NCBI RefSeq assembly: GCF_001518815.1
Contig: NZ_CP013987.1
Location: forward strand, 3,494,501-3,558,500
Reading direction: 5' to 3'
Length of the DNA stretch: 64,000 nt
Origin: Pseudomonas oryzihabitans
GTDB taxonomy: Bacteria; Pseudomonadota; Gammaproteobacteria; Pseudomonadales; Pseudomonadaceae
Shown here: piece after piece, positions 7,474-39,016 of the stretch
How positions within the stretch are numbered: the first letter of the stretch is position 1
Layout: the number at the start of each line of letters is the position of its first letter
The notes under the pieces: generated by a model
What the model was told of the DNA's origin: nothing
Seen by the model: the letters and a program-made list of their open reading frames with translations, nothing else
The model's database searches: none
Made by a program: the position numbers and the translations under genes

Positions 7474-10400
7474 ATGAGCGTGGATGTCGAACTGGTGCTG
7501 GCCGGCAAGATCGGCTTCGCGGCGCACCAGAACGCGGTGCCCGTGCTGCGTGAATTGCGCCTCACCCACAGCGGCCCCGAACCCCTGGCCGACCTCAGCC
7601 TCACGGTGACTGCCGAGCCGGCTTTCGTGGTGCCGCGTACCTGGCACCTGGAGCGCCTCGATCCCCAGGGCACCCTCTATCTCGATGATCGTGACCTCGA
7701 ATTCGACGCCGCCCTGCTCGGCAGCCTCCAGGAAAGCCTGGTCGCCCAGCTGACCTTCACGGTGCGCCAAGGTGACGAGATCCTGCAGACGCGGCGCTAT
7801 CCGGTCGAGCTGCTGGCCCGTAACCAGTGGGGCGGCGTGGACAGCATGCCGGAACTGGCGGCGGCCTTCGTCATGCCCAACGATCCGGCGGTGGATCGCC
7901 TGCTGGGCGCTGCCGCCGAGGTCCTGCGTCGCGCCGGCAAGTCCACGGCGCTGGATGGTTACGAGGGGGAGTCGCGCCGCCGGGTCTGGGAGCTCAGTTC
8001 GGCGCTCTGGTCGGCCCTGTGCGGCTTGCAGCTGACCTACGCAGTGCCGCCGGCCAGCTTCGAGCGCCAGGGCCAGAAGATCCGCACGCCCGGCGCCATC
8101 CTCGACGGTGGCCTGGCCACCTGCCTGGATCTCGCGCTGCTCGCCTGCGCGGCCCTGGAACAGGCCGGTCTCAACCCGCTGCTGGTGATCACCCACGGCC
8201 ATGCCTTCGCCGGGGTCTGGCTGCAACCCCAGGAATTCGCCCAGCTGCTCACCGACGATGCCGAGCCGGTACGCAAGCGGGTAGCGCTCAAGGACCTACT
8301 GGTATTCGAGACCACCCAGGCCACCGCCTCCCCGCCGCCGTCCTTCAGCCAGGCAGTGCAACTGGCCGAGCGCCAGCTGGACGACGACAGTTTCGTGCTG
8401 GCCCTGGACATCCGCCGCGCCCGCCTGCAACGCATCCGCCCACTGGCGGTGCCCGGACAGCTCGCCACTCCCCTGGACGGCTTGCTGCTGCCGGGTGAAG
8501 CCCTGGAAGAGGCCCCACCGCTGCCAGCCTTCGACGTGGACGTCGAGGCCGCGCCCACCACCCCGGTCGGTCGCCTGGCGCTCTGGCAGCGCAAGCTGCT
8601 CGACCTCACCACCCGCAACCGCCTGCTGCACGTGCCGGAAAACGCCCGCAGCGTGCCCCTGCTCTGCCCCGAACCGGCGGCGCTGGAAGATCGCCTGGCC
8701 GAGGGCCGGGCGCTGCGCCTGGTGCCGTTGCCGGACCTGGCGGTAAGCGGTCGCGACGCGGTGCTGCACGAGGCGCGTGAACACGAGAATCTGCAAGACG
8801 AGTACGCCCGTGGTGCCCTGGCCCGCGGCGAGGTGGTCGCCCCCCTGGATGCGACCAAGCTGGACGCGGCCCTGGTAGAGCTCTATCGGCGCGCCCGCAG
8901 TGACCTCGACGAGGGCGGTGCCAATACCCTCTACCTGGCGCTGGGTTTCCTGCGCTGGAAAAAGGCCGCCGACGATCCCAAGCATTACCGTGCCCCGCTG
9001 ATCCTGCTGCCGGTGCGCCTGGAACGGCAGAGCGCCGCCAGCGGCATCACCTTGCACCTGTTCGAGGACGAGCCGCGCTTCAACCTCACCCTGCTGGAAC
9101 TGCTGCGCCACGATTTCGACCTGGATATTCCCGGACTCGATGGCCCTCTGCCCGGGGATGGCAACGGTATCGACGTGGACGGGATCTGGACCAAGGTCCG
9201 CCGCGCGGTGCGCGACCTGCCCGGCTTCGAGGTGAGCAGCGAGCTGCTGCTCGGTCAGTTCTCCTTCGCCAAGTACCTGATGTGGAAGGACCTCACCGAG
9301 CGCAGCGACCAGCTGATGGAAAGCCCGCTGGTGCGGCACCTTTTGGAGCGCACCAGCGAATCCGGCGCCTACCTCAGCGGCGGCAGCTTTCCTCGCGAGC
9401 GCGAGCTGGATCGCCAAGTGACCCCGGCCGAACTTTTCACCCCGTTGCCGGCGGATTCTTCGCAACTGGCGGCGGTACTGGCCTCGGCCAGCGGCCAGGA
9501 TTTCGTCCTCGACGGCCCGCCCGGTACCGGCAAGTCCCAGACCATCGCCAACATGATCGCCCACAACCTGGCGCTCGGCCGGCGGGTCTTGTTCGTCGCC
9601 GAGAAGCGCGCGGCCCTCGACGTGGTGTATCGCCGCCTGGAGGCCCAGGGGCTCGGCGAATTCTGTCTGGAGCTGCATTCGAGCAAGGCCTCCAAGGCCG
9701 AGGTGCTCAAGCAGCTGGAGCGCGCCTGGGACACCCGCGACGGCCTCGATGAAGAGGAATGGCTGGTCGAGGCCGCCGAGGTGGAGCGCCTGCGGGATCG
9801 TCTCAACGCCGTGGTGGAGCGCCTGCACCGCCGCTGGCCCAATGGCCTGACCCTGCAGCAGAGCATTGGCCGCGTCCTGCGCGACGCCGCCCCCGATACC
9901 CCACGCCTGGCGTGGTCCCAGGCCGATGCCCACGACGCCGAGGCCCTGGCCGAACTACGCACCGCGGTACGCCGCCTGACCCTGCATGCTGAGACCGGGC
10001 GCAGCCTGGCGGCGGATTTCGCCCTCTTGCCGGCGCATCCCTGGTCCAACGCCTGGCAGGACGCCCTGGTCACCGCTGCCGAACGCCTGCGCGACACCCA
10101 ACACGACCTCCAGCAGGCGCGGCAACGCCTGCGTGACGTCCTCGGCCTGCCGCTGGCCGACCAAGTGGCGCCCCGCCGCCTGCTGGACTTCGCTGAACTG
10201 CTGCAAAGCGCCGCCGGCCAGGACCTGGCCTTCGCCTTCGGCCCTGGCGCCGCCGAGCGCCAGCGTCACCTGGGACGCGCCCTGGAATTGCTGGCGGACT
10301 ACCAGGCACTGGAGCGCGAGCTGTCGGTACCCTATGCCGCCGAAGCCTGTCGCCGCGTCGCCCTGACCCAGCTGGAAACCGCCTGGGATGCCGCCGGCCG

Positions 10401-12606
10401 CCGCTTCTGGATCTTCGCCAGCCGCGCCCAGCGGCAGGTCACCCAGGACCTCGCCCGCCAGGGCGAAACCCAGGGTCAACCCGATGTAGCTGCCGACCTG
10501 CCGCGCCTGCGCCGCCAGCGTACCCTGCTCACTGAGCTGGACGACCTGGCGCCTACCCTTGGCAGCATCAGCGGCTGGCAGGGCGTCACCAGCGACCTCG
10601 ACGCCCTGCTCGCCCGTCGCGCCCTGGCCGAGCGGCTCGGCACCGCGCTGCCAACCCTGGCGGAAACGCCCGAGCAGTTGCTGGCCCTGCGCCAGGCGGC
10701 AGCGCGCCGGTTGCAGCATCCCGAGGATCAGCCGGAGGACACCACCCTGGCCCCAGCCAGCAGTGCCTTCGCCGAGGCCCTGGATGCGGCCGAAGCCGCT
10801 CGCCAGGCATTCGCCGCGCAGGCGGGACTGGCCGGTGATACCGCCGCCGCCGAGCTGGTGCGCACCGCCGCCGCGCTGCTGCGTCAGCCGGGTCGGCTCA
10901 AGGCCTGGTGCGATTGGCAACGCGTTCGCGAGGAAGCCGAGGCGCTGGGCCTGACGGCGCTGATCGCCCGTGCCACGACCGCCGCGGCCGACGACCTCCC
11001 GGCCCTGTTCGAGACCGCTTATGCCCGCTGGTTCGCCGCCACCGCCCTGGACGCCGAGCCGCTGCTGCGCGATTTCGTCCCGGCCGAACACGAGAGCGAC
11101 ATCCTGGCCTATCGCCGGTTGGACGACCGGCTGCAGAATCTGGCCGTGCGCCATATCCGCGCCCTGCTCTGCCATGGGCTGCCGCCGAAGAACGACGCGG
11201 CGCGCCAGGGCGGCGGCTTCGCCGTGCTCAAGCACGAACTGCAGAAGCAGCGCCGGCACAAGCCGCTGCGCCAGCTGGCCCTGGAAATGGGCGACGCCCT
11301 GGCGCGGCTGGCGCCCTGCATGCTCATGAGCCCGCTGTCCATCGCCCAGTACCTGCCTCCGGATGGCGGCCTGTTCGACCTGGTGATCTTCGACGAAGCC
11401 TCGCAGATCGCTCCCTGGGACGCCGTGGGCGCCATCGCCCGGGGCGTGCAGGTGGTGATCGCCGGCGACCCCCGGCAGATGCCACCAACGCGCTTCTTCG
11501 ACCGCGCCGCCGGCGAGGACGACACCGCCGAGGACCTGGAAAGCATCCTCGACGAATGCCTGGGCGCCGGCATCTATAGCCACAGTCTCAACTGGCACTA
11601 CCGCAGTCGCCACGAGAGCCTGATCGCCTTTTCCAACCATCACTACTACGACGGCAAGCTCATCACCTTTCCCGCGCCGGAGATCCGTCCGAGCGCGGTG
11701 GAATGGCGACGGGTCGACGGCGTCTACGCCAAGGGCAAGGGCCGCCACAATGCCATCGAGGCCCAGGCCATGGTCGCCGAAGCGGTCAAGCGCCTGCTCG
11801 ATCCGGCCTTCGCCGGCCTCAGCCTGGGCATCATCACCCTCAACAGCGAACAGCAGCGGCTGGTCACCGACCTGCTCGACCGCGCGCGCCAGCAGCACCC
11901 GGAGATCGAGGCGCACTTCGCCGAAGACCTGGCCGAGCCGGTGGTGGTCAAGAACCTGGAAACGGTCCAGGGCGACGAGCGCGATCTGATCATGCTCGGC
12001 ATCGGTTTCGGTCCCACCGAGCCGGGCGCCAATACGATGTCGATGAACTTCGGTCCGCTGAACAAGGACGGCGGCTGGCGTCGCCTCAACGTGGCCGTGA
12101 CCCGGGCGCGACGGGAGATGCTGGTGTTCTCCTCCTTCGATCCGGGGCTGATCGACCTCAACCGCACCAACGCCCGCGCGGTACGGGATCTCAAGCTGTT
12201 CCTGGAATTCGCGCAGCGGGGGCCCCAGGCCCTGGCGGCTGCGGTCAAGGGTTCCCTGGGCGGGCACGACTCGCCCTTCGAAGAAGCCGTGGCCCAGGCG
12301 CTGGAAGCCAAGGGCTGGCAGGTGGTGCCACAGATCGGCGTCTCGCGCTTCCGTATCGACCTGGGCATCGTCCATCCCGACCGGCCGGGCGACTATCTCG
12401 TCGGCATCGAATGCGACGGCGCCACCTATCACAGTGCCGCCACCGCCCGCGACCGCGACAAGACCCGCAGCGCCATCCTCGAAGGCCTGGGCTGGACGCT
12501 GTTGCGCGTCTGGTCCACCGAATGGTGGATCGACCGCGCCGGTGCCACCGAGCGCCTGCATGGCGAGATCGAGCGGCTGCTGGAGGAGTCGCGGGCGAAG
12601 GCTTGA
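7474..12606 (+). CDS. Giant helicase-nuclease protein (DUF4011/SF1 helicase with Vsr-like endonuclease)
   Basis: 1710 residues. About residues 1-280 form a beta-rich part followed by a possible papain/transglutaminase-like domain: C217 in DGGLATCLDLALL, H243 in THGHAFAGVWL and E279 in LLVFETT. Residues ~360-640 resemble DUF4011 (WQRKLLDLTTRNRLLHV). The helicase core has Walker A GPPGTGKSQ at 681-688, a long helical insertion, DEASQIAPWDA at 1307 and later RecA-2 motifs (TVQGDERDLIMLGIGFGP, LNVAVTRARREMLV). The last ~110 residues match a Vsr/MTES_1575-like nuclease with D1629 and E1646-C-D1648. It acts on DNA or RNA in the cytoplasm; a defence role is inferred. It stands alone, with repeats starting 7 bases after its stop. 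Confidence 0.85.
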   Translation: MSVDVELVLAGKIGFAAHQNAVPVLRELRLTHSGPEPLADLSLTVTAEPAFVVPRTWHLERLDPQGTLYLDDRDLEFDAALLGSLQESLVAQLTFTVRQGDEILQTRRYPVELLARNQWGGVDSMPELAAAFVMPNDPAVDRLLGAAAEVLRRAGKSTALDGYEGESRRRVWELSSALWSALCGLQLTYAVPPASFERQGQKIRTPGAILDGGLATCLDLALLACAALEQAGLNPLLVITHGHAFAGVWLQPQEFAQLLTDDAEPVRKRVALKDLLVFETTQATASPPPSFSQAVQLAERQLDDDSFVLALDIRRARLQRIRPLAVPGQLATPLDGLLLPGEALEEAPPLPAFDVDVEAAPTTPVGRLALWQRKLLDLTTRNRLLHVPENARSVPLLCPEPAALEDRLAEGRALRLVPLPDLAVSGRDAVLHEAREHENLQDEYARGALARGEVVAPLDATKLDAALVELYRRARSDLDEGGANTLYLALGFLRWKKAADDPKHYRAPLILLPVRLERQSAASGITLHLFEDEPRFNLTLLELLRHDFDLDIPGLDGPLPGDGNGIDVDGIWTKVRRAVRDLPGFEVSSELLLGQFSFAKYLMWKDLTERSDQLMESPLVRHLLERTSESGAYLSGGSFPRERELDRQVTPAELFTPLPADSSQLAAVLASASGQDFVLDGPPGTGKSQTIANMIAHNLALGRRVLFVAEKRAALDVVYRRLEAQGLGEFCLELHSSKASKAEVLKQLERAWDTRDGLDEEEWLVEAAEVERLRDRLNAVVERLHRRWPNGLTLQQSIGRVLRDAAPDTPRLAWSQADAHDAEALAELRTAVRRLTLHAETGRSLAADFALLPAHPWSNAWQDALVTAAERLRDTQHDLQQARQRLRDVLGLPLADQVAPRRLLDFAELLQSAAGQDLAFAFGPGAAERQRHLGRALELLADYQALERELSVPYAAEACRRVALTQLETAWDAAGRRFWIFASRAQRQVTQDLARQGETQGQPDVAADLPRLRRQRTLLTELDDLAPTLGSISGWQGVTSDLDALLARRALAERLGTALPTLAETPEQLLALRQAAARRLQHPEDQPEDTTLAPASSAFAEALDAAEAARQAFAAQAGLAGDTAAAELVRTAAALLRQPGRLKAWCDWQRVREEAEALGLTALIARATTAAADDLPALFETAYARWFAATALDAEPLLRDFVPAEHESDILAYRRLDDRLQNLAVRHIRALLCHGLPPKNDAARQGGGFAVLKHELQKQRRHKPLRQLALEMGDALARLAPCMLMSPLSIAQYLPPDGGLFDLVIFDEASQIAPWDAVGAIARGVQVVIAGDPRQMPPTRFFDRAAGEDDTAEDLESILDECLGAGIYSHSLNWHYRSRHESLIAFSNHHYYDGKLITFPAPEIRPSAVEWRRVDGVYAKGKGRHNAIEAQAMVAEAVKRLLDPAFAGLSLGIITLNSEQQRLVTDLLDRARQQHPEIEAHFAEDLAEPVVVKNLETVQGDERDLIMLGIGFGPTEPGANTMSMNFGPLNKDGGWRRLNVAVTRARREMLVFSSFDPGLIDLNRTNARAVRDLKLFLEFAQRGPQALAAAVKGSLGGHDSPFEEAVAQALEAKGWQVVPQIGVSRFRIDLGIVHPDRPGDYLVGIECDGATYHSAATARDRDKTRSAILEGLGWTLLRVWSTEWWIDRAGATERLHGEIERLLEESRAKA

Positions 12607-31924: not shown

Positions 31925-32119
31925 TTTGTCGAGAGGGCGAGGTGCGATAGGCGCTTATGCTCTAGCAGCAACTCGAGTTCGATCTTGTCGCCTACGACTA
32001 CCCCCCTTACCAGCAGGCTTGCGAAGGGCCTCCCAGTACTCCATCGAGGGCCTCTCAAAGAATGCGAGGCAACTCGATGAATACGAGGCCCATAGAACAC
32101 TACCAGAGGGCATTTGAAC

Positions 32120-33073
32120 GTGCTAAACCTAGATAAAACACGACAAGAAATACATGAAACCATTGACTCAAAAAACGAGCTAGCTCTAGCAAAGGTGCGT
32201 GGACAGCTGAGCTGGTTATCGCACACAGATAAAAACTATAAAAACTCAGAAAAGACCTGGATCCTCAAAGCTCAGGAGGGAACACTTGAAAAGTTTCGAG
32301 ACATATATAGAATATCAAGGCTAGAAAGCGACATAGAATTAGTGTCGCTTGCACGCAATTTATTTGAAAACATAATATGGCTAAAGCTTTTCAATAAAGA
32401 TCACGGCTACGGCTTAGTGTTCTACTATCAGCTACTTAATGAACAAATAAAGAGCCAAGAGCAAGTCATCAAAAAAGCTCAAGGCGAGATCGAGCTATTC
32501 GAAGAGCTGGCAGAAGAAGACAAACCCGACCTTGAAACATACGAAAATTTAATGAGCAAGGGTGATATCTCTGAAGCAGGTATAGATACTGTGGAAAAGT
32601 TCCTCTCCGATCAAAGAGCCGCAGTGGACTCTAAAGCCAGAAATTCTTTTTCAATATATGCCGAAGCTGCAAAACAAAATGGCTATTCTTATCAAGCTCA
32701 TCTAATAAAAACCAAAGTCATCCCACATCACCAGGAACGAATATCCGTATTGCAAAACCACCTTGAGGATCTAAAAAAATCACACACTGAAGCCGACCTC
32801 TCAAAGCTAAAGGAGCTTGGACTAAACATACGATGGAATTGGCACGATAAGGCAAAAAATGTTGGGATGTCTGATCATTACTATTTTCTCTACGCTTTCA
32901 CAAGTCGATCCTTACATTGCACAGCGATGAACGTCATAACTCCAAAAGCTCTAGACGATAGCGAGAGAAATCTTTTGCTGGACTACATCTTTATCACCAG
33001 CAAAAATTGCTACAACGAGATAGAGTCAATTAGTTACCACGGAAAGGTCAACTTAGTTCACGTAGATATATAA
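32120..33073 (+). CDS. AT-rich gene, unknown function (DUF5677/HEPN-like guess)
   Basis: 317 residues from GTG 32120, which has GAGGG 9 bases upstream; a TTG at 32114 is an alternative. The gene is visibly AT-rich (A/T-ending codons, AAA/ATA/TTA common) in a GC-rich chromosome, a clear sign of transfer. The protein is mostly helical and has no signal peptide. Two blocks, SLARNLFENIIWLKLF (~residues 75-92) and YYFLYAFTSRSLHCTAMN (~260-278), recall the R-x3-E and Y-x-x-x-S-x-x-x-H pattern of DUF5677 proteins. A canonical HEPN Rx4-6H motif is not present. It lies 398 bases before the STAND-nuclease gene on the same strand. A defence role is only inferred. Confidence 0.65.
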   Translation: MLNLDKTRQEIHETIDSKNELALAKVRGQLSWLSHTDKNYKNSEKTWILKAQEGTLEKFRDIYRISRLESDIELVSLARNLFENIIWLKLFNKDHGYGLVFYYQLLNEQIKSQEQVIKKAQGEIELFEELAEEDKPDLETYENLMSKGDISEAGIDTVEKFLSDQRAAVDSKARNSFSIYAEAAKQNGYSYQAHLIKTKVIPHHQERISVLQNHLEDLKKSHTEADLSKLKELGLNIRWNWHDKAKNVGMSDHYYFLYAFTSRSLHCTAMNVITPKALDDSERNLLLDYIFITSKNCYNEIESISYHGKVNLVHVDI

Positions 33074-33470
33074 CAGCCACAGCTAAGCGCCTTGCCTCGC
33101 TTTGTCTATTGCAGTGCTGTCCACATGCAGAGTACAAGAAGTGTTATCCGAGTGCTGAAATGGATCTCTTCTTCCTTTCACAACTTCTGTGCCGATAGCT
33201 CACCGCATACCCGATTCTAGCCTATGAAAAATTAACGAGACAGTATTCCCGCCCCGCATTAAAAATACAACTAAATCCAACTTTATATCTCACTATCCAT
33301 TCCGTGGCTACCGGCGTGGAGCACTAGGTCGGCAAGCCAGTCGCCGGAATAATGCGTGGCGACGGATCAACTGGCAGTTCGGTCGCGTCCGTGGCGGACC
33401 AACTATCGCTTGACTGCTCTTTATTCTCCCGCATGCTCTCCAATATTTGATGAAAGGGGTTTCGGGGACG
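33074..33470. other. Gene-free stretch between the two island genes
   Basis: These 397 bases turn from AT-rich (to about 33300) to GC-rich, so a junction between two acquired pieces may lie near 33300. No gene is supported. A short open frame on the plus strand just before 33415 (ending RVRGGPTIA) could be a decayed remnant, but it matches nothing I recognise. Confidence 0.4.
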
Positions 33471-36400
33471 ATGTTCGAAATTACTGGCGCACAAGTCGCG
33501 AACCTCAATGACGCCGATCTGCGGACATTAGTCGCGCGTCTTGCCTTGGCAGAGTTGCGGGCGCAGGGTTGCCCCAGTTCGTCGGTAACGGCTGGTGGCA
33601 ATCAGGATGCGGCCGATGGCGGCCTTGATGTCCGGGTCGAGTGCCCGTCCGCACTGGTGATGCCGGATTTCGTACCGCGCCAGCACGTAGGGTTTCAGGT
33701 GAAAAAGCCCGACATGCCGGCGAGCGCAATCCGCGATGAGATGCGTCCTGGCGGCGTACTACGGCCGGTCATCGCCGAACTCGCCGCTCGCTCGGGTGCC
33801 TACATCATCGTCAGCGCGCAAGGGTCAGTCGCAGACAAGCCCCTGAGCGATCGTCGCGATGCGATCCGAGCGCAGCTCGAAGATCTGCCTGAGGCCGAGC
33901 AGTTGCATAGCGACTTCTATGATCGCGACCGGCTAGCGACATGGGTCAATCACTATCCCGGAATTGCCGCTTGGGTCCGCACGCGGCTCGGCATCGGTAT
34001 GTCTGGCTGGAGCAGCATCGGCGATTGGTGCGGCGTCGGCGTGAGCGAAGAGACGCCCTATCTCTTCAACGACAAGGCTTGCCTAACCGATGAACGAACG
34101 AGCGATCGCGAGCAACTCACCATTGGTGAGGGTATCGCTCGGCTTCGCGTTTCTCTGACCAACGCTCGCCAATGTATCCGGTTGATTGGCTTGTCCGGTC
34201 TCGGAAAGACTCGTCTCGTGCAGGCACTGTTCGAGGATGGTGTCGGCGAGGCAGCGCTCGACCCGGGGCTTGCCGTTTATACCGACTATTCGGTCGAGAC
34301 TGACCCAACCGCCCGGGACATGGCGCGCCAGCTAGTTATCGCACGGCAACGTGCGATCCTGATCGTCGATAACTGCAATCCGGCGACGCACAGCGAACTT
34401 GCCCGCATCTGTTCGGGAGCGGGGAGCCAGGTCAGCCTCCTCACGGTCGAATATGATGTTCGCGACGATGAGCCCGAGCGTACCGAGGTCTTTCGCCTGC
34501 AATCAGCATCGCCCGAAATGGTGGAACTGTGGCTGGAAAAGACCTTCCCTAATGTGACGCAGGTGGACCGGCGCACGATATCGGAGTTCAGCGACGGTAA
34601 TTTCCGTGTGGCGCGCGCGCTCGCCGAAACCCTCGGGAAAGGCGAGACCCTGGGAAAGCTCAAGAGCCGTGACCTCTTCGAGCGGATTTTTCACCAGCGC
34701 AACGAGCCCGACCGGGATCTCCTTTCCGCCGCCGAAGACCTTGCGCTGCTCTATTCGATCGATGGCGAAGACACATCGGAAAGCAGCGAACTTGCGCGGG
34801 TTGCTGCTATTCGCTGCGCTTCCATGGCGACGATATATGCGGCGCTGAACACGCTTCGTCAGCGCGGGATCGCGCAGCTGCGCGGACGGTGGCGCGCGAT
34901 CCTGCCGCACGCGATCGCCAACCCGCTCGCCGGGTTCGCCCTCGAACGCATGCCCCCGGCCGATTTTGATCGCTTCTGCGCGTCGCTCACGGCGCGCATG
35001 CAGAAGTCCCTTTCGCGCCGCCTCGGCTATCTGCACGACAGCGCCGAGGCACGGGCCGCGGTCGAGCGCTGGCTCGGTGCCGACGGTCTTCTTGGCGATC
35101 TCACGGCGTTGGGCGAAGACGGCCTCCAGATCATCACGAATATCGCTCCGGTCGCGCCCGATGCCGTGCTCGCAAGGATCGAGCGAGACGTGGCGGGGCC
35201 GCGCGGCGCCGAGATACTCAATCCGCAGTCGAGCGACCGATGGCAGTGGATACGGTTGATCAAGCTCCTCGCTTACGATTCACCGCTATTCGACCGCGCT
35301 GCGACATTGCTTGCCCGGTTCCTTTCCGCCGAACCGCCCAATCAGAACAACAACTCGGCATCGGACATGTTGGCCGAGCTGTTTCACCTGTACCTGTCGG
35401 GCACCAAGGCATTGCCAGATCAGCGGCGATCGCTTGTGCGCCGGCTCGCGCAATCCGGTGATCCGGCTTTGGTGCGCTGCGCCGGCGTCGCCCTCAATGC
35501 GCTGCTGAAGGCCCACCATTTCAGTTCAACCAGCAATTTCGACTTCGGCGCCCGGTCACGCGACTATGGCTGGCACCCGCCAAAGCGTGGCGACATCTGG
35601 GCCTGGTACAACGGCGCGGTCGACTTGGCGGTCGAGCTTTCGCCAATCATCGAAAACGCCCGGGACCACCTTGCCCATAGCGTAAGGGAGCTGTGGCATT
35701 TCGGCGCCTGTCACGATGCGCTCGAACGGGCAGCGACCAACTTCTCTTCCGAGCGGCCCTGGATCGAGGGGTGGATCGGCTTCCGCACAGCGCTGCGTTT
35801 CGAGGGCGACGCTATGCCTGATGAGGTGCGCGCGCGTCTCACCGCGCTCATCAACCGCCTGAAACCCACCGATCTTCTCCATCAGGCCCGTGCGGTGGTA
35901 CTGGGGCGCAGCAATTTCGGTTGGGATGTCGCTGACGGTGATGCCGACGACGGCGATATCATGAAGCCGTATGAGCGCGCCTCCCAGCTCGCGAAGGAGA
36001 TCGGAACCGCGCTCGCGCACGACCCGGAGACGCGCGCTACCTTCATCGCCGAACTGCTCGTCGAACAACATCCGCAGCGCGCCTACGAGTGCGGCATCGG
36101 CCTGTCGGATGGCGCCGCCGATCTTGATGCGATTTGGCGGGAACTGCTGGGCCTCTTTTCTGCCGCCGATGTGGACAGCCGGAATGCGACGGTGCTGGGC
36201 GGGTTCATCCATGGAGCAAACGCCAGGGATTCGGCCTTCGCCGACGCCGCGCTGGAAGATGTGATCGAGAATCCCGATCTCGCCGCGAGCTTGCCCTATC
36301 TTCAGGCGCGTGTCGCTATCGATACCCAGGGCATTGCGCGGCTTCGGCGTGCGATTGAACGTGGCGTCCTGTCGGCGCGGATTTTTCACAGCATCGCTAA

Positions 36401-37247
36401 TGGCAGCGTTGGCGAGTCTCCACCCGACGCGCTTGGGCCGCTGCTCACTGACATCGCCAGTCTCGCCGACGGCGTGGAGATCGCGCTCGATATCCTGCAC
36501 ATGCACTTCTACTGCGATCAGGAGGAGGGCCGACAACGCGCTCCATCCTTGATTGCCGTTGGCCGTGAGCTGCTGCTGCGCGCCGACTTCGGGAAGAAGC
36601 AGTCGTTTCGCGATTTTGGGCTGCATACCGTCATTCGGGTCTGCTGCGCCGGACCTGATGGTGCGGCGACGCTGCGCGAGATCTGCGCGCGGGTCCGGGT
36701 CGGGCTGGAGACCGTCTATCTCTCGTCCTACGATCTTGGTTATGTCTTGAAGGCGCTCTTCGAAACGCATCCCCTGATCGCTCTCGACGAATTCCTGCTT
36801 CCTGAGCTCCGGCCGAGGAATCAGGGACTGTTTGAGGGGGACTTTGGGTCTGGCACACCGGTGGAAGATGTCGGCGCCGAAACCCTTATTCAGTGGGCGA
36901 ATATCGATCCCGATCGGCGCTATCCCATGCTTGGCAAAAGCATCCCCATGTTCAAGCGGCAGCACGGCGAAGAGGAGAATGGTGTCTCAACGCTTTTTCT
37001 GGAAATATTGGGCTATGCGCCAGACAAGCGGACGTTCCTCGATGATATGTGGTCGCGACTGCATCCGCGCAGCTGGAGCGGCTCGCTCGCCGATATCCTG
37101 GTTCAGCGTCGCGAGGCTATCACCACGCTGGGTGACAATGTTGGGGGCGAGGTTCAGCAATTAATCTCCGACATGCTGCCCAAACTCGAACGCTGGATCG
37201 AAAATGAGAGCAAGCGCGATCGGAAAGGCGAGGAGAGTTTCGAATAG
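33471..37247 (+). CDS. STAND-type ATPase with N-terminal PD-(D/E)XK-like nuclease domain, putative defence protein
   Basis: 1258 residues from ATG 33471; an ATG at 33450 in frame is an alternative start. Residues 1-~170 look like a restriction-type nuclease: ITGAQVANLNDADLRTLV, then GGNQDAADGGLDV (D53) and GFQVKK (Q76-V-K78), the D...QxK core of Mrr/Cap4-like domains. An ATPase follows with Walker A GLSGLGKT at 240-247 and Walker B ILIVDN at D300, then a winged-helix-like region. The remaining ~750 residues are helical repeat-like, as in STAND sensors such as Avs. Likely model: target recognition triggers ATP-dependent assembly and DNA cutting. Codon use differs from the flanking genes. No known Avs type is claimed. 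Confidence 0.75.
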   Translation: MFEITGAQVANLNDADLRTLVARLALAELRAQGCPSSSVTAGGNQDAADGGLDVRVECPSALVMPDFVPRQHVGFQVKKPDMPASAIRDEMRPGGVLRPVIAELAARSGAYIIVSAQGSVADKPLSDRRDAIRAQLEDLPEAEQLHSDFYDRDRLATWVNHYPGIAAWVRTRLGIGMSGWSSIGDWCGVGVSEETPYLFNDKACLTDERTSDREQLTIGEGIARLRVSLTNARQCIRLIGLSGLGKTRLVQALFEDGVGEAALDPGLAVYTDYSVETDPTARDMARQLVIARQRAILIVDNCNPATHSELARICSGAGSQVSLLTVEYDVRDDEPERTEVFRLQSASPEMVELWLEKTFPNVTQVDRRTISEFSDGNFRVARALAETLGKGETLGKLKSRDLFERIFHQRNEPDRDLLSAAEDLALLYSIDGEDTSESSELARVAAIRCASMATIYAALNTLRQRGIAQLRGRWRAILPHAIANPLAGFALERMPPADFDRFCASLTARMQKSLSRRLGYLHDSAEARAAVERWLGADGLLGDLTALGEDGLQIITNIAPVAPDAVLARIERDVAGPRGAEILNPQSSDRWQWIRLIKLLAYDSPLFDRAATLLARFLSAEPPNQNNNSASDMLAELFHLYLSGTKALPDQRRSLVRRLAQSGDPALVRCAGVALNALLKAHHFSSTSNFDFGARSRDYGWHPPKRGDIWAWYNGAVDLAVELSPIIENARDHLAHSVRELWHFGACHDALERAATNFSSERPWIEGWIGFRTALRFEGDAMPDEVRARLTALINRLKPTDLLHQARAVVLGRSNFGWDVADGDADDGDIMKPYERASQLAKEIGTALAHDPETRATFIAELLVEQHPQRAYECGIGLSDGAADLDAIWRELLGLFSAADVDSRNATVLGGFIHGANARDSAFADAALEDVIENPDLAASLPYLQARVAIDTQGIARLRRAIERGVLSARIFHSIANGSVGESPPDALGPLLTDIASLADGVEIALDILHMHFYCDQEEGRQRAPSLIAVGRELLLRADFGKKQSFRDFGLHTVIRVCCAGPDGAATLREICARVRVGLETVYLSSYDLGYVLKALFETHPLIALDEFLLPELRPRNQGLFEGDFGSGTPVEDVGAETLIQWANIDPDRRYPMLGKSIPMFKRQHGEEENGVSTLFLEILGYAPDKRTFLDDMWSRLHPRSWSGSLADILVQRREAITTLGDNVGGEVQQLISDMLPKLERWIENESKRDRKGEESFE

Positions 37248-37364
37248 TCACTGATCCATGCATCCCCAGCGGGGCTCTGACGCCGATCATCGCCTTCAGG
37301 TCGACGACTAATCGATTGGATTATTGAACCCCCCCCTAACCATAAACCGGATTTGCCATCACTC

Positions 37365-37403
37365 AAAACCAAAAGCCCGCAGTTACGCGGGCTTTTGGTT
37401 TTT
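37365..37403. terminator. Strong bidirectional terminator between island and guaA
   Basis: AAAACCAAAAGCCCGC (37365-37380) and GCGGGCTTTTGGTTTT (37387-37402) form a perfect 16-bp stem with loop AGTTAC and T-rich flanks on both strands. It ends guaA from the right and the STAND gene from the left. Confidence 0.93.
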
Positions 37404-37438
37404 CCTACTAGACGTACCGGTCTATGCCGGACGCGGGA

Positions 37439-39016
37439 TCACTCCCACTCAATCGTCGCCGGCGGCTTGCTCGAGACGTCGTAGGTGACGCGGGAGATGC
37501 CGTCGATTTCGTTGATGATGCGGTTGGAGACCTTTTCCAGCAGCTCGTAGGGCAGATGGGCCCAGCGGGCGGTCATGAAGTCGATGGTTTCCACCGCGCG
37601 CAGGGCGACGACCCAGGCGTAGCGGCGGCCGTCGCCGACCACGCCGACGGATTTGACCGGCTGGAAGACGACGAAGGCCTGGCTGACCTTGTGGTACCAG
37701 TCGGCCTTGCGCAGCTCGGCGATGAAGATGTCGTCGGCGCGGCGCAGCAGGTCGGCGTATTCCTTCTTCACTTCGCCGAGGATGCGCACGCCCAGGCCCG
37801 GGCCCGGGAAGGGATGGCGGTAGACCATGTCGTAGGGCAGACCCAGCTCCAGGCCGATCTTGCGCACCTCGTCCTTGAACAGTTCGCGCAGCGGCTCGAC
37901 CAGCTTGAGGTTCATCTCCTCGGGCAGGCCGCCGACGTTGTGGTGGGACTTGATGACATGGGCCTTGCCGGTCTTGGCGCCGGCCGACTCGATGACGTCG
38001 GGATAGATGGTGCCCTGGGCCAGGAACTTGATGTTGTCGAGCTTGCTGGCTTCGGCGTCGAAGACGTCGATGAAGGTGCGGCCGATGATCTTGCGCTTCT
38101 TCTCCGGGTCGGCTTCGCCCTCCAGGTTGGTCAGGAAGCGCTGCTCGGAGTTGGAGCGGATCACCTTGACGCCCATGTTCTCGGCGAACATGGCCATCAC
38201 CTGGTCACCCTCGTGCAGGCGCAGGAGGCCGTTGTCGACGAAGACGCAGGTCAACTGGTCGCCGATGGCCTTGTGCAGCAGGGCCGCGACCACGGAGGAG
38301 TCGACGCCGCCGGAGAGGCCCAGCAGCACGTTGGCGCTGCCGACCTGGGCGCGCACCTGGGCGATGGCGTCCTCGACGATGTTGGCCGGGGTCCAGAGGG
38401 CTTCGCAGCCGCAGATGTCCTTCAGGAAGCGCGAGAGGATGCGCCCGCCCTGCTTGGTGTGGGTCACCTCGGGGTGGAACTGCACGCCGTACCAGCCACG
38501 CTCGTCGTCACCCATGGCGGCGATGGCGCAGCTGGGGGTGCTGGCGACGACGTGGAAGCCTTCCGGCAGCTTGCCGACCTTGTCGCCATGGCTCATCCAG
38601 ACGTCCAGGCCGAGCACGCCGTCGTCGTCGAGGTGGTCCTGGATGCCTTCGAGCAGGCGGCTCTTGCCGACCACGTCGACCTTGGCATAGCCGAATTCAC
38701 GGATGTTGGAGCCTTCGACCTTGCCGCCGAGTTGCTCGGCCATGGTCTGCATGCCGTAGCAGATGCCGAACAGCGGTACGCCCAGGTCGAACACCGCCTT
38801 GGGTGCGCGCGGGCTGCCGGCCTCATGGACCGACTCGGGCCCGCCGGCCAGGATGATGCCGCGCGGAGCGAAGGCACGGATATCGGCGTCGTCCATGTCG
38901 AAGGGGTGCAGCTCGCAATAGACGCCCAGTTCGCGCACGCGGCGGGCGATGAGCTGGGTGTACTGGGAGCCGAAGTCGAGGATGAGGATGCGGTGGGCGT
39001 GGATGTCTTGGGACAT
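37439..39016 (-). CDS. guaA: GMP synthase (glutamine-hydrolysing) GuaA
   Basis: 525 residues, the normal length. The N-terminal glutamine amidotransferase has the Cys in [16 protein letters not shown] and the HPEVTHT motif. The PP-loop ATP pyrophosphatase domain has [21 protein letters not shown], and the C-terminal dimerisation domain ends [17 protein letters not shown], the family's conserved tail. It converts XMP to GMP with glutamine and ATP in the cytoplasm. It follows guaB (87 bases between) with a perfect 32-bp palindrome in the gap. Its 3' end borders the island. Confidence 0.98.

What the first reader, a model, noticed from the sequence alone, without database searches (positions are those of the whole stretch)
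33471..37247. STAND-like ATPase fused to a PD-(D/E)XK-type nuclease: possible new anti-phage sensor
Seen: D53...Q76-V-K78 nuclease core, Walker A at 240-247, Walker B at D300, then ~750 residues of helical repeat-like sequence, in codons unlike the neighbours. Known: Avs and related STAND proteins join an N-terminal effector, a NTPase and a C-terminal repeat sensor that recognises phage proteins. Inference: this is a nuclease-armed defence protein whose sensor part I cannot match to the Avs1-4 types I know.
Basis: partly seen in the sequence, partly recalled or inferred. Interest (0 to 1): 0.78.

Follow-up and report, generated by a model that had tools for sequence, protein, structure and literature searches.

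The report
Stand-alone nuclease–STAND anti-phage protein
This gene encodes a bacterial immune-receptor-like protein (a likely DNA-cutting domain, a molecular switch and a long sensing arm) that belongs to the same family as one half of a known E. coli phage-defence system, but it seems to work without the second half and has recently spread between very different bacteria.

Summary
ORF 33471-37247 encodes 1258 aa with an N-terminal Mrr-like PD-(D/E)XK motif, a STAND P-loop NTPase and an all-helical C-terminal solenoid. AlphaFold/Foldseek place residues 1-640 with Avs3, NOD2, Apaf-1 and NRC2. The nuclease call rests on motif and predicted topology only. The protein is not unclassified: it matches PADLOC's PD-Lambda-4_A end to end (1218 bits), the large subunit of the E. 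coli defence system PD-λ-4. The difference lies in the partner. The E. coli-type locus has A plus a 303-aa B gene. B was not found in this genome or in 50 of 50 other genomes that carry a relative of A, and no neighbouring gene recurs in more than 4 of 68 loci. This is therefore a stand-alone, B-less form, about 30% identical to E. coli A, in a family seen in 11 phyla. Near-identical copies (89-95%) occur in alpha-, beta- and gammaproteobacteria, nine of ten with at least part of a relaxase (rlxS) tail upstream. Here the gene sits in a variable slot at the 3' end of guaA. Most likely it is a single-protein NLR-like sensor that releases a DNase on infection. The trigger is unknown and nothing was tested at the bench.

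The parts
33471..37247 (+). Coding sequence of the nuclease-STAND-solenoid protein, PD-Lambda-4_A family, 1258 aa
   Evidence: ORF; PDLC03991, E=0, 1218 bits, residues 1-1257
33471..34016 (+). N-terminal effector, residues 1-182: predicted Mrr-like PD-(D/E)XK nuclease (acid 28, D49, D53, Q76, K78)
   Evidence: hhalign gave no support (its positive control, also failed)
34068..34760 (+). STAND P-loop NTPase, residues about 200-430: Walker A 240-247, Walker B D300-N301, invariant G376-N377
34788..34970 (+). Winged-helix-like segment, residues about 440-500
   Evidence: predicted helices 440-448 and 452-464 and strands 469-471 and 475-477
34971..37244 (+). All-helical solenoid, residues about 501-1258, presumed sensor
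   Evidence: lower conservation (0.40-0.59 per 50-residue block, last 8 residues 0.64, against 0.57-0.68 in residues 1-500)
33302..37288 (.). DNA block shared at 87-95% identity with 10 near copies in other genera (6 of the 10 reach 33302, 8 of the 10 end at exactly 37288)
   Evidence: the fragment L072 not counted
33302..33408 (+). Decayed 3' end of an rlxS-type relaxase gene, a trace of a conjugative element
   Evidence: reading in L018 and in the window; L018 stretch matches annotated rlxS; 9 of 10 near copies share at least part of it, L001 does not
37349..37438 (.). guaA terminator and 3' edge, where similarity to 12 of 12 congeners stops

Best explanation
It is a stand-alone, B-less member of the PD-Lambda-4_A family and works as a single-protein NLR-like receptor. 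The C-terminal helical solenoid binds an infection signal, most likely a phage protein. Binding switches the STAND NTPase from its closed to its ATP-bound, oligomeric state. Oligomerisation brings the N-terminal Mrr-like nuclease domains together, and they cut DNA and stop the phage, probably at the cost of the cell. Shown here by computation: the three-part anatomy, invariant catalytic and Walker residues, purifying selection, patchy accessory distribution, some defence-gene neighbours, and no B found. Inferred: that the N domain cuts DNA, that the ligand is a phage protein, that activation goes through oligomers, and the outcome for the cell.
For: PADLOC PD-Lambda-4_A E=0 over residues 1-1257. 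PMC10952713 (table passage) lists PD-λ-4 and cites Vassallo et al. 2022 for it; [quoted passage not shown] Foldseek of the residue 1-640 model: Avs3 E 2.2e-8, STAND protein 6mfv 4.5e-8, NRC2, NOD2, Apaf-1 and CED-4, all probability 1.00. Solenoid model: best matches karyopherin-type proteins, E 6e-4. Catalytic motif invariant in 68 of 68 rows and of Mrr type. Mean dN/dS 0.149 over 45 pairs. B not found in the own genome or in 50 of 50 relatives' genomes; no neighbour family in more than 4 of 68 loci. Defence genes near copies: type I RM (L010), Tmn (L018), AbiP2 RT (L092).
Against: No bench test. TM-scores of the whole-model Foldseek matches are low (0.21 for Avs3; multi-domain chain, rmsd 21), and no lone PD-(D/E)XK structure is in the 50 rows shown. 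hhalign of the N domain against Mrr and Cap4 sets found nothing, though its positive control (Mrr against Cap4) also failed. The E. coli-type locus has a B gene, so A alone might not defend. Of 10 neighbours of near copies scanned one by one, 6 matched no PADLOC model and 1 only weakly. HMM searches cannot exclude an unrelated partner elsewhere in the genome.
Confidence: 0.66

Rival explanations
1. Incomplete PD-λ-4: the protein needs a B-type partner and is a non-functional or conditionally functional half-system here.
For: The E. coli-type locus carries B 45 bp downstream of A; in E. coli near-identical A and B are found in 151 and 147 of 5426 genomes, though I did not check that they are the same genomes. 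PMC9519451 counts as homologues of a system those with all components (passage).
Against: B was not found in 50 of 50 genomes with relatives of A; Enterobacter L078, Vibrio L079 and E. coli L092 show A without B in the stretch held; purifying selection without B (dN/dS 0.149); 59 of the 72 genome-contig loci have a single full-length frame.
Confidence: 0.12
2. Same machine, different trigger: it senses nucleic acid or a DNA state (broken ends, plasmid or conjugative DNA entry) rather than a phage protein, and acts mainly against rival mobile elements.
For: Carried beside relaxase tails and on plasmids, 21 of 41 matching records typed conjugative; no match among 50,697 phage records.
Against: The E. 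coli system of this family bears the name of the phage it was selected with. HEAT-like solenoids bind proteins or nucleic acids, so the fold does not decide.
Confidence: 0.17
3. The N domain is not an active DNase but an RNase or an inactive oligomerising domain.
For: QxK rather than (D/E)xK motif; no profile match to a known nuclease family.
Against: D49, D53, Q76 and K78 identical and residue 28 acidic in 68 of 68 rows; the same motif marks Mrr endonucleases in this scan; predicted alpha-beta-beta-beta-alpha-beta order.
Confidence: 0.15
4. A housekeeping or regulatory STAND protein (like MalT) unrelated to defence.
For: STAND ATPases also serve as transcription regulators (MalT, PMC10427625, start of the abstract in the listing).
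Against: Nuclease-like N domain instead of a DNA-binding regulator; patchy: 1 of 13 congeners (the own genome) and 15 of 298 family genomes; near copies in three classes.
Confidence: 0.03

Closest known systems
PD-λ-4 (PD-Lambda-4) of E. coli, protein A
   Same: Full-length homology, same length class (1258 and 1283 aa), same invariant nuclease and NTPase residues
   Different: About 30% identity; the E. coli, Enterobacter and Vibrio rows form a separate starred branch; no B gene found in the genome
Avs3 (AVAST type 3)
   Same: Best Foldseek match; nuclease effector, STAND NTPase and C-terminal sensor are described for Avs1-Avs4 in PMC12931631 (passages)
   Different: No PADLOC Avs match; 1258 aa against the 2028-residue chain 8dgc_A; Mrr-like motif, which 0 of 10 Cap4_nuclease rows hold. 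That Avs3 carries a Cap4-like nuclease is recalled, not from a call
Mrr-type PD-(D/E)XK endonucleases (PF04471)
   Same: Shared signature DGG[IL]D ... QxK[KR] (18 of 19 Mrr rows, 66 of 68 family rows)
   Different: No Pfam or hhalign match; 23 against 16 residues from the D to the Q
Eukaryotic NLRs and apoptosome ATPases (NOD2, NRC2, Apaf-1, CED-4)
   Same: STAND NTPase fold
   Different: Different effector and sensor domains (recalled)

Membership tests
PD-Lambda-4_A protein family | Full-length match to the PADLOC model | tested here: met
   E=0, 1218 bits, 3-1282 of 1283
PD-λ-4 two-gene system | Gene B (PDLC03992) next to A | tested here: not met
   no match in the own genome, E. coli control rings; none in the window
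PD-λ-4 two-gene system | Protection against λ | not testable with these tools
   no bench test
STAND NTPases | P-loop NTPase with Walker A and B, followed by a winged helix | tested here: met
   (winged helix by predicted secondary structure only)
STAND NTPases | C-terminal superstructure-forming repeats | tested here: met
   helical solenoid, predicted; HEAT-type matches, weak E-values
STAND NTPases | Ligand-driven oligomerisation | not testable with these tools
   needs biochemistry or a solved structure
Avs (AVAST) types in PADLOC | Match to an Avs model | tested here: not met
   only three PD-Lambda-4_A models matched at E up to 1
Avs (AVAST) | Recognition of terminase, portal or another phage protein | not testable with these tools
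   ligand unknown
PD-(D/E)XK nucleases | Conserved acid, D ... (D/E/Q)xK residues | tested here: met
   68 of 68 rows
PD-(D/E)XK nucleases | Fold of that type | tested here: inconclusive
   predicted element order fits, but no lone nuclease in the 50 Foldseek rows shown and hhalign negative

The most novel reading that the evidence does not exclude
PD-λ-4_A is a separate class of bacterial NLR: a single protein pairing an Mrr-type nuclease with a HEAT-like, karyopherin-shaped sensor, ancestrally independent of B, recognising a conserved phage feature not used by the Avs proteins, and under transfer so intense that near-identical copies serve alpha-, beta- and gammaproteobacteria.
Probability: 0.4. 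Interest if true: 0.62.

Novelty: new variant of a known kind. Interest (0 to 1): 0.42.

Why it matters
PD-λ-4 is an experimentally found defence system for which no mechanism turned up in my paper searches (open-access papers only). Reading its large subunit as a nuclease-armed NLR-like receptor, with no second gene found in any of the 50 relatives' genomes searched, turns it into a testable single-protein system. The cross-class spread of one near-identical version suggests it works in many cell backgrounds.

Tried and rejected
Phage records: no protein or DNA match; IMG/VR gave 2 loci. Sequence search of solved structures: the single protein found nothing; family profiles gave only marginal hits, among them the plant NLR Roq1 at E 0.03-0.07 and for the N domain two unrelated chains. 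Profile-profile test of the N domain against Mrr and Cap4: negative, and uninformative because the Mrr-Cap4 control was negative too. Pfam on 45 N domains: no nuclease family among the 19 listed. DUF5677 gene upstream as a partner: rejected, its only matches among the loci held were the window's own genome. A conserved neighbour: rejected, none in more than 4 of 68 loci. The PADLOC scan of 122 neighbours of near copies listed 163 families (25 shown), but these overlap on few proteins and type I RM dominates; the window's own 52 other ORFs gave 12 families. I use only individually identified neighbours as evidence, 3 of 10 matched clearly, 1 weakly (caspase, E 1e-9) and 6 not at all at E up to 1e-8. 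Incompleteness: B was sought in 50 of the 72 genome-contig loci only; 13 of those 72 loci are cut short, frameshifted or fragments and were left out of the alignments and tree. The second structure library (pdb_via) was not available.
Full report
What is there. ORF 33471-37247 (+) encodes 1258 residues. It lies between a GGDEF/EAL gene (ends 31924) and guaA (37439-39016, minus strand); these two names are my reading of the translations. An ATG at 33450 and a TTG at 33447 are in frame, but the ATG at 33471 lines up with the start of most relatives. GC3 is 0.715, against 0.83-0.93 for six other genes tested nearby; the separate DUF5677 gene at 32114-33073 has 0.41.

Family. PADLOC's PD-Lambda-4_A model PDLC03991 matches from end to end (E=0, 1218 bits); only PD-Lambda-4_A models matched at E up to 1. 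Pfam shows only sub-threshold matches, NCBIfam and PDB sequences nothing. E. coli FEX669 (L094) fits the A model over its whole length (2518 bits, 1283 aa) and carries, 45 bp downstream, a 303-aa gene that fits the B model (653 bits). I take this as the two-gene PD-λ-4 arrangement; the strain that was tested was not seen. The name PD-λ-4 is in a table of PMC10952713 (passage), which cites Vassallo et al. 2022 and gives it only a P-loop NTPase domain. The Vassallo paper itself (PMC9519451; outline and passages) does not hold the term in its main text (it is not among the 2 papers); [quoted passage not shown] Its figures are not held.

Anatomy. In an alignment of 68 family members residue 28 is acidic and D49, G51, D53, Q76, K78 and K79 are identical in all 68 rows, as are G240, G243, G245, K246, T247 and N301; D300 is D in 67 and E in 1. 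The predicted element order of residues 1-182 (helix 14-31, strands 39-41, 54-57 and 72-78, helices 84-91 and 99-106, strand 110-115, helix 122-134, strand 146-150) fits a PD-(D/E)XK core, with D53 at the start of one strand and QxK at the end of the next. The signature DGG[IL]D...QxK[KR] is the one seen in Mrr endonucleases: 66 of 68 family rows, 18 of 19 Mrr rows and 0 of 10 Cap4 rows hold it. Outside these two families it turned up once, in an antisense frame, in 1.6 million residues of six-frame translation. Profile comparison did not confirm the nuclease, but its positive control failed too, so that test had no power.

Structure. Residues 1-640: mean pLDDT 85.6, pTM 0.79. The best solved matches are Avs3 with phage terminase (E 2.2e-8), the STAND protein 6mfv (4.5e-8), NRC2, NOD2 and Apaf-1. 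TM-scores are low (0.21-0.30 for these five), so I rely on E-values and on the consistency of the list; other AAA+ proteins (RFC, RuvB, ORC) follow at weaker E-values. The viral library gave a phage protein labelled NLR-like first (E 1.1e-5) and, among the rows with names, mainly AAA+ proteins after it. Residues 470-1258: mean pLDDT 87.9, helical apart from a short hairpin. The best matches are transportin-3 and other karyopherins, only at E 6e-4. Conservation is 0.57-0.68 per 50-residue block in residues 1-500 and 0.40-0.59 after that, with 0.64 for the last 8 residues.

Stand-alone. B was not found in the own genome or in 50 of 50 genomes that hold a relative of A; I sent 50 of the 72 loci. 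The E. coli control rang in both searches. In 198 genomes of the family of the Siccibacter genome B was found in 11, several of these matches partial or weak. In E. coli near-identical A and B occur in 151 and 147 of 5426 genomes. Other A genes (Enterobacter L078, Vibrio L079, E. coli L092) have no B in the stretch held. Across 68 loci, 61 with more than 1.5 kb upstream and 64 with more than 1.5 kb downstream, no neighbouring protein family recurs in more than 4. The simplest reading is that B was added in one enterobacterial line.

Distribution and movement. The 72 genome-contig loci include 59 with a full-length frame. The 68-row tree has rows from 11 phyla, some known only from metagenome bins; phylum labels are far more clustered than in shuffles (0 of 200 as low), so much of the history is within phyla, and the place of the Vibrio row, which has a long branch, is unsure. 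The window's own branch mixes classes: copies 89-95% identical in protein sit in Stenotrophomonas, Xanthomonas, Dokdonella, Bordetella, Acidovorax, Siccibacter, Sphingobium and Novosphingobium, and on a conjugative Sphingobium plasmid. The host of the window is probably a member of the Pseudomonadaceae: contigs of two genomes in its family have the same lengths as the Pseudomonas contigs of L015 and L011. Mean dN/dS among ten intact near copies, the window included, is 0.149 (0.109 in residues 200-500, 0.199 in 851-1258), so the gene is kept under selection. One more near copy (L019) is frameshifted and one (L072) is in pieces.

How it came. Window DNA matches the near copies only within about 33302 to 37288. 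Pairs of other copies share more, in some pairs to about 550 bases before the start codon, and a little more on the right. The left part reads, in L018, as the C-terminal tail of an RlxS relaxase; in the window it is decayed, and 9 of the 10 near copies share at least part of it with the window (not the plasmid copy L001). The gene thus probably travelled next to a relaxase gene of a conjugative element. In 12 of 12 congeneric genomes similarity to the window stops between 37349 and 37438, at the guaA 3' border, and none shares the window's island in the flank held (about 1.5 kb for 11 of them, 0.24 kb for L149). A distant relative in Telluria (L044, 38% identity) also has guaA downstream within 4 kb. 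The guaA 3' end thus looks like a reused insertion site.

Setting. Individually identified neighbours of copies are a type I methylase and specificity gene (L010), Tmn (L018), a caspase-like protein (L006, weak), an AbiP2 reverse transcriptase (L092), an Abi/PD-T4-5-like protein (L078), and DUF2290 plus helicase (L094, by annotation). Helicase+DUF2290 is listed as a defence system in PMC10952713. Six of the ten neighbours matched nothing, and I have no formal background rate.

Mechanism. By analogy with Avs proteins, whose nuclease effectors cut phage and host DNA after recognising terminase or portal (PMC12931631, passages), the likeliest course is: sensor binding, ATP-driven assembly, nuclease activation. 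Each of these steps is inference. Membership: it is a PD-Lambda-4_A family protein and a STAND protein; it is not a PD-λ-4 two-gene system, because B was sought and not found; it works like an Avs but is not one by sequence.

Verdict. I found no paper that describes PD-λ-4 A as a STAND or NLR protein (searches; open-access papers only; PMC11811056 and PMC13268207, seen as passages, mention PD-Lambda systems only in passing).

Noticed in passing
window 7474-12603 (+): 1710-aa ORF matching PADLOC candidates PDC-S37 (E=0) and Hhe (2e-166), a second possible defence gene in the window.
   Followed up: no
window 32114-33073 (+): A+T-rich (GC 39.5%) DUF5677 gene directly upstream, foreign to the host by composition, with no homologue in the other loci then held.
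   Followed up: partly
L018 7803-7931; plasmid records: The RlxS relaxase tail is similar to sequence in 2389 plasmid records; in 4 of the 8 rows shown the match lies under a sul1/folP annotation.
   Followed up: no
L006, L018 and L019, upstream of the gene: A 380-aa protein that looks SIR2-like by eye sits upstream in these three Sphingomonadales copies, with a 352-aa possible nuclease (by eye) before it in L006 and L018; neither L006 protein matches PADLOC at E up to 1e-8.
   Followed up: no
L138-L141 and L143: Open frames of 1254-1380 aa in the same taxonomic family match the PD-Lambda-4_A model only weakly or in part, hinting at a wider superfamily.
   Followed up: no
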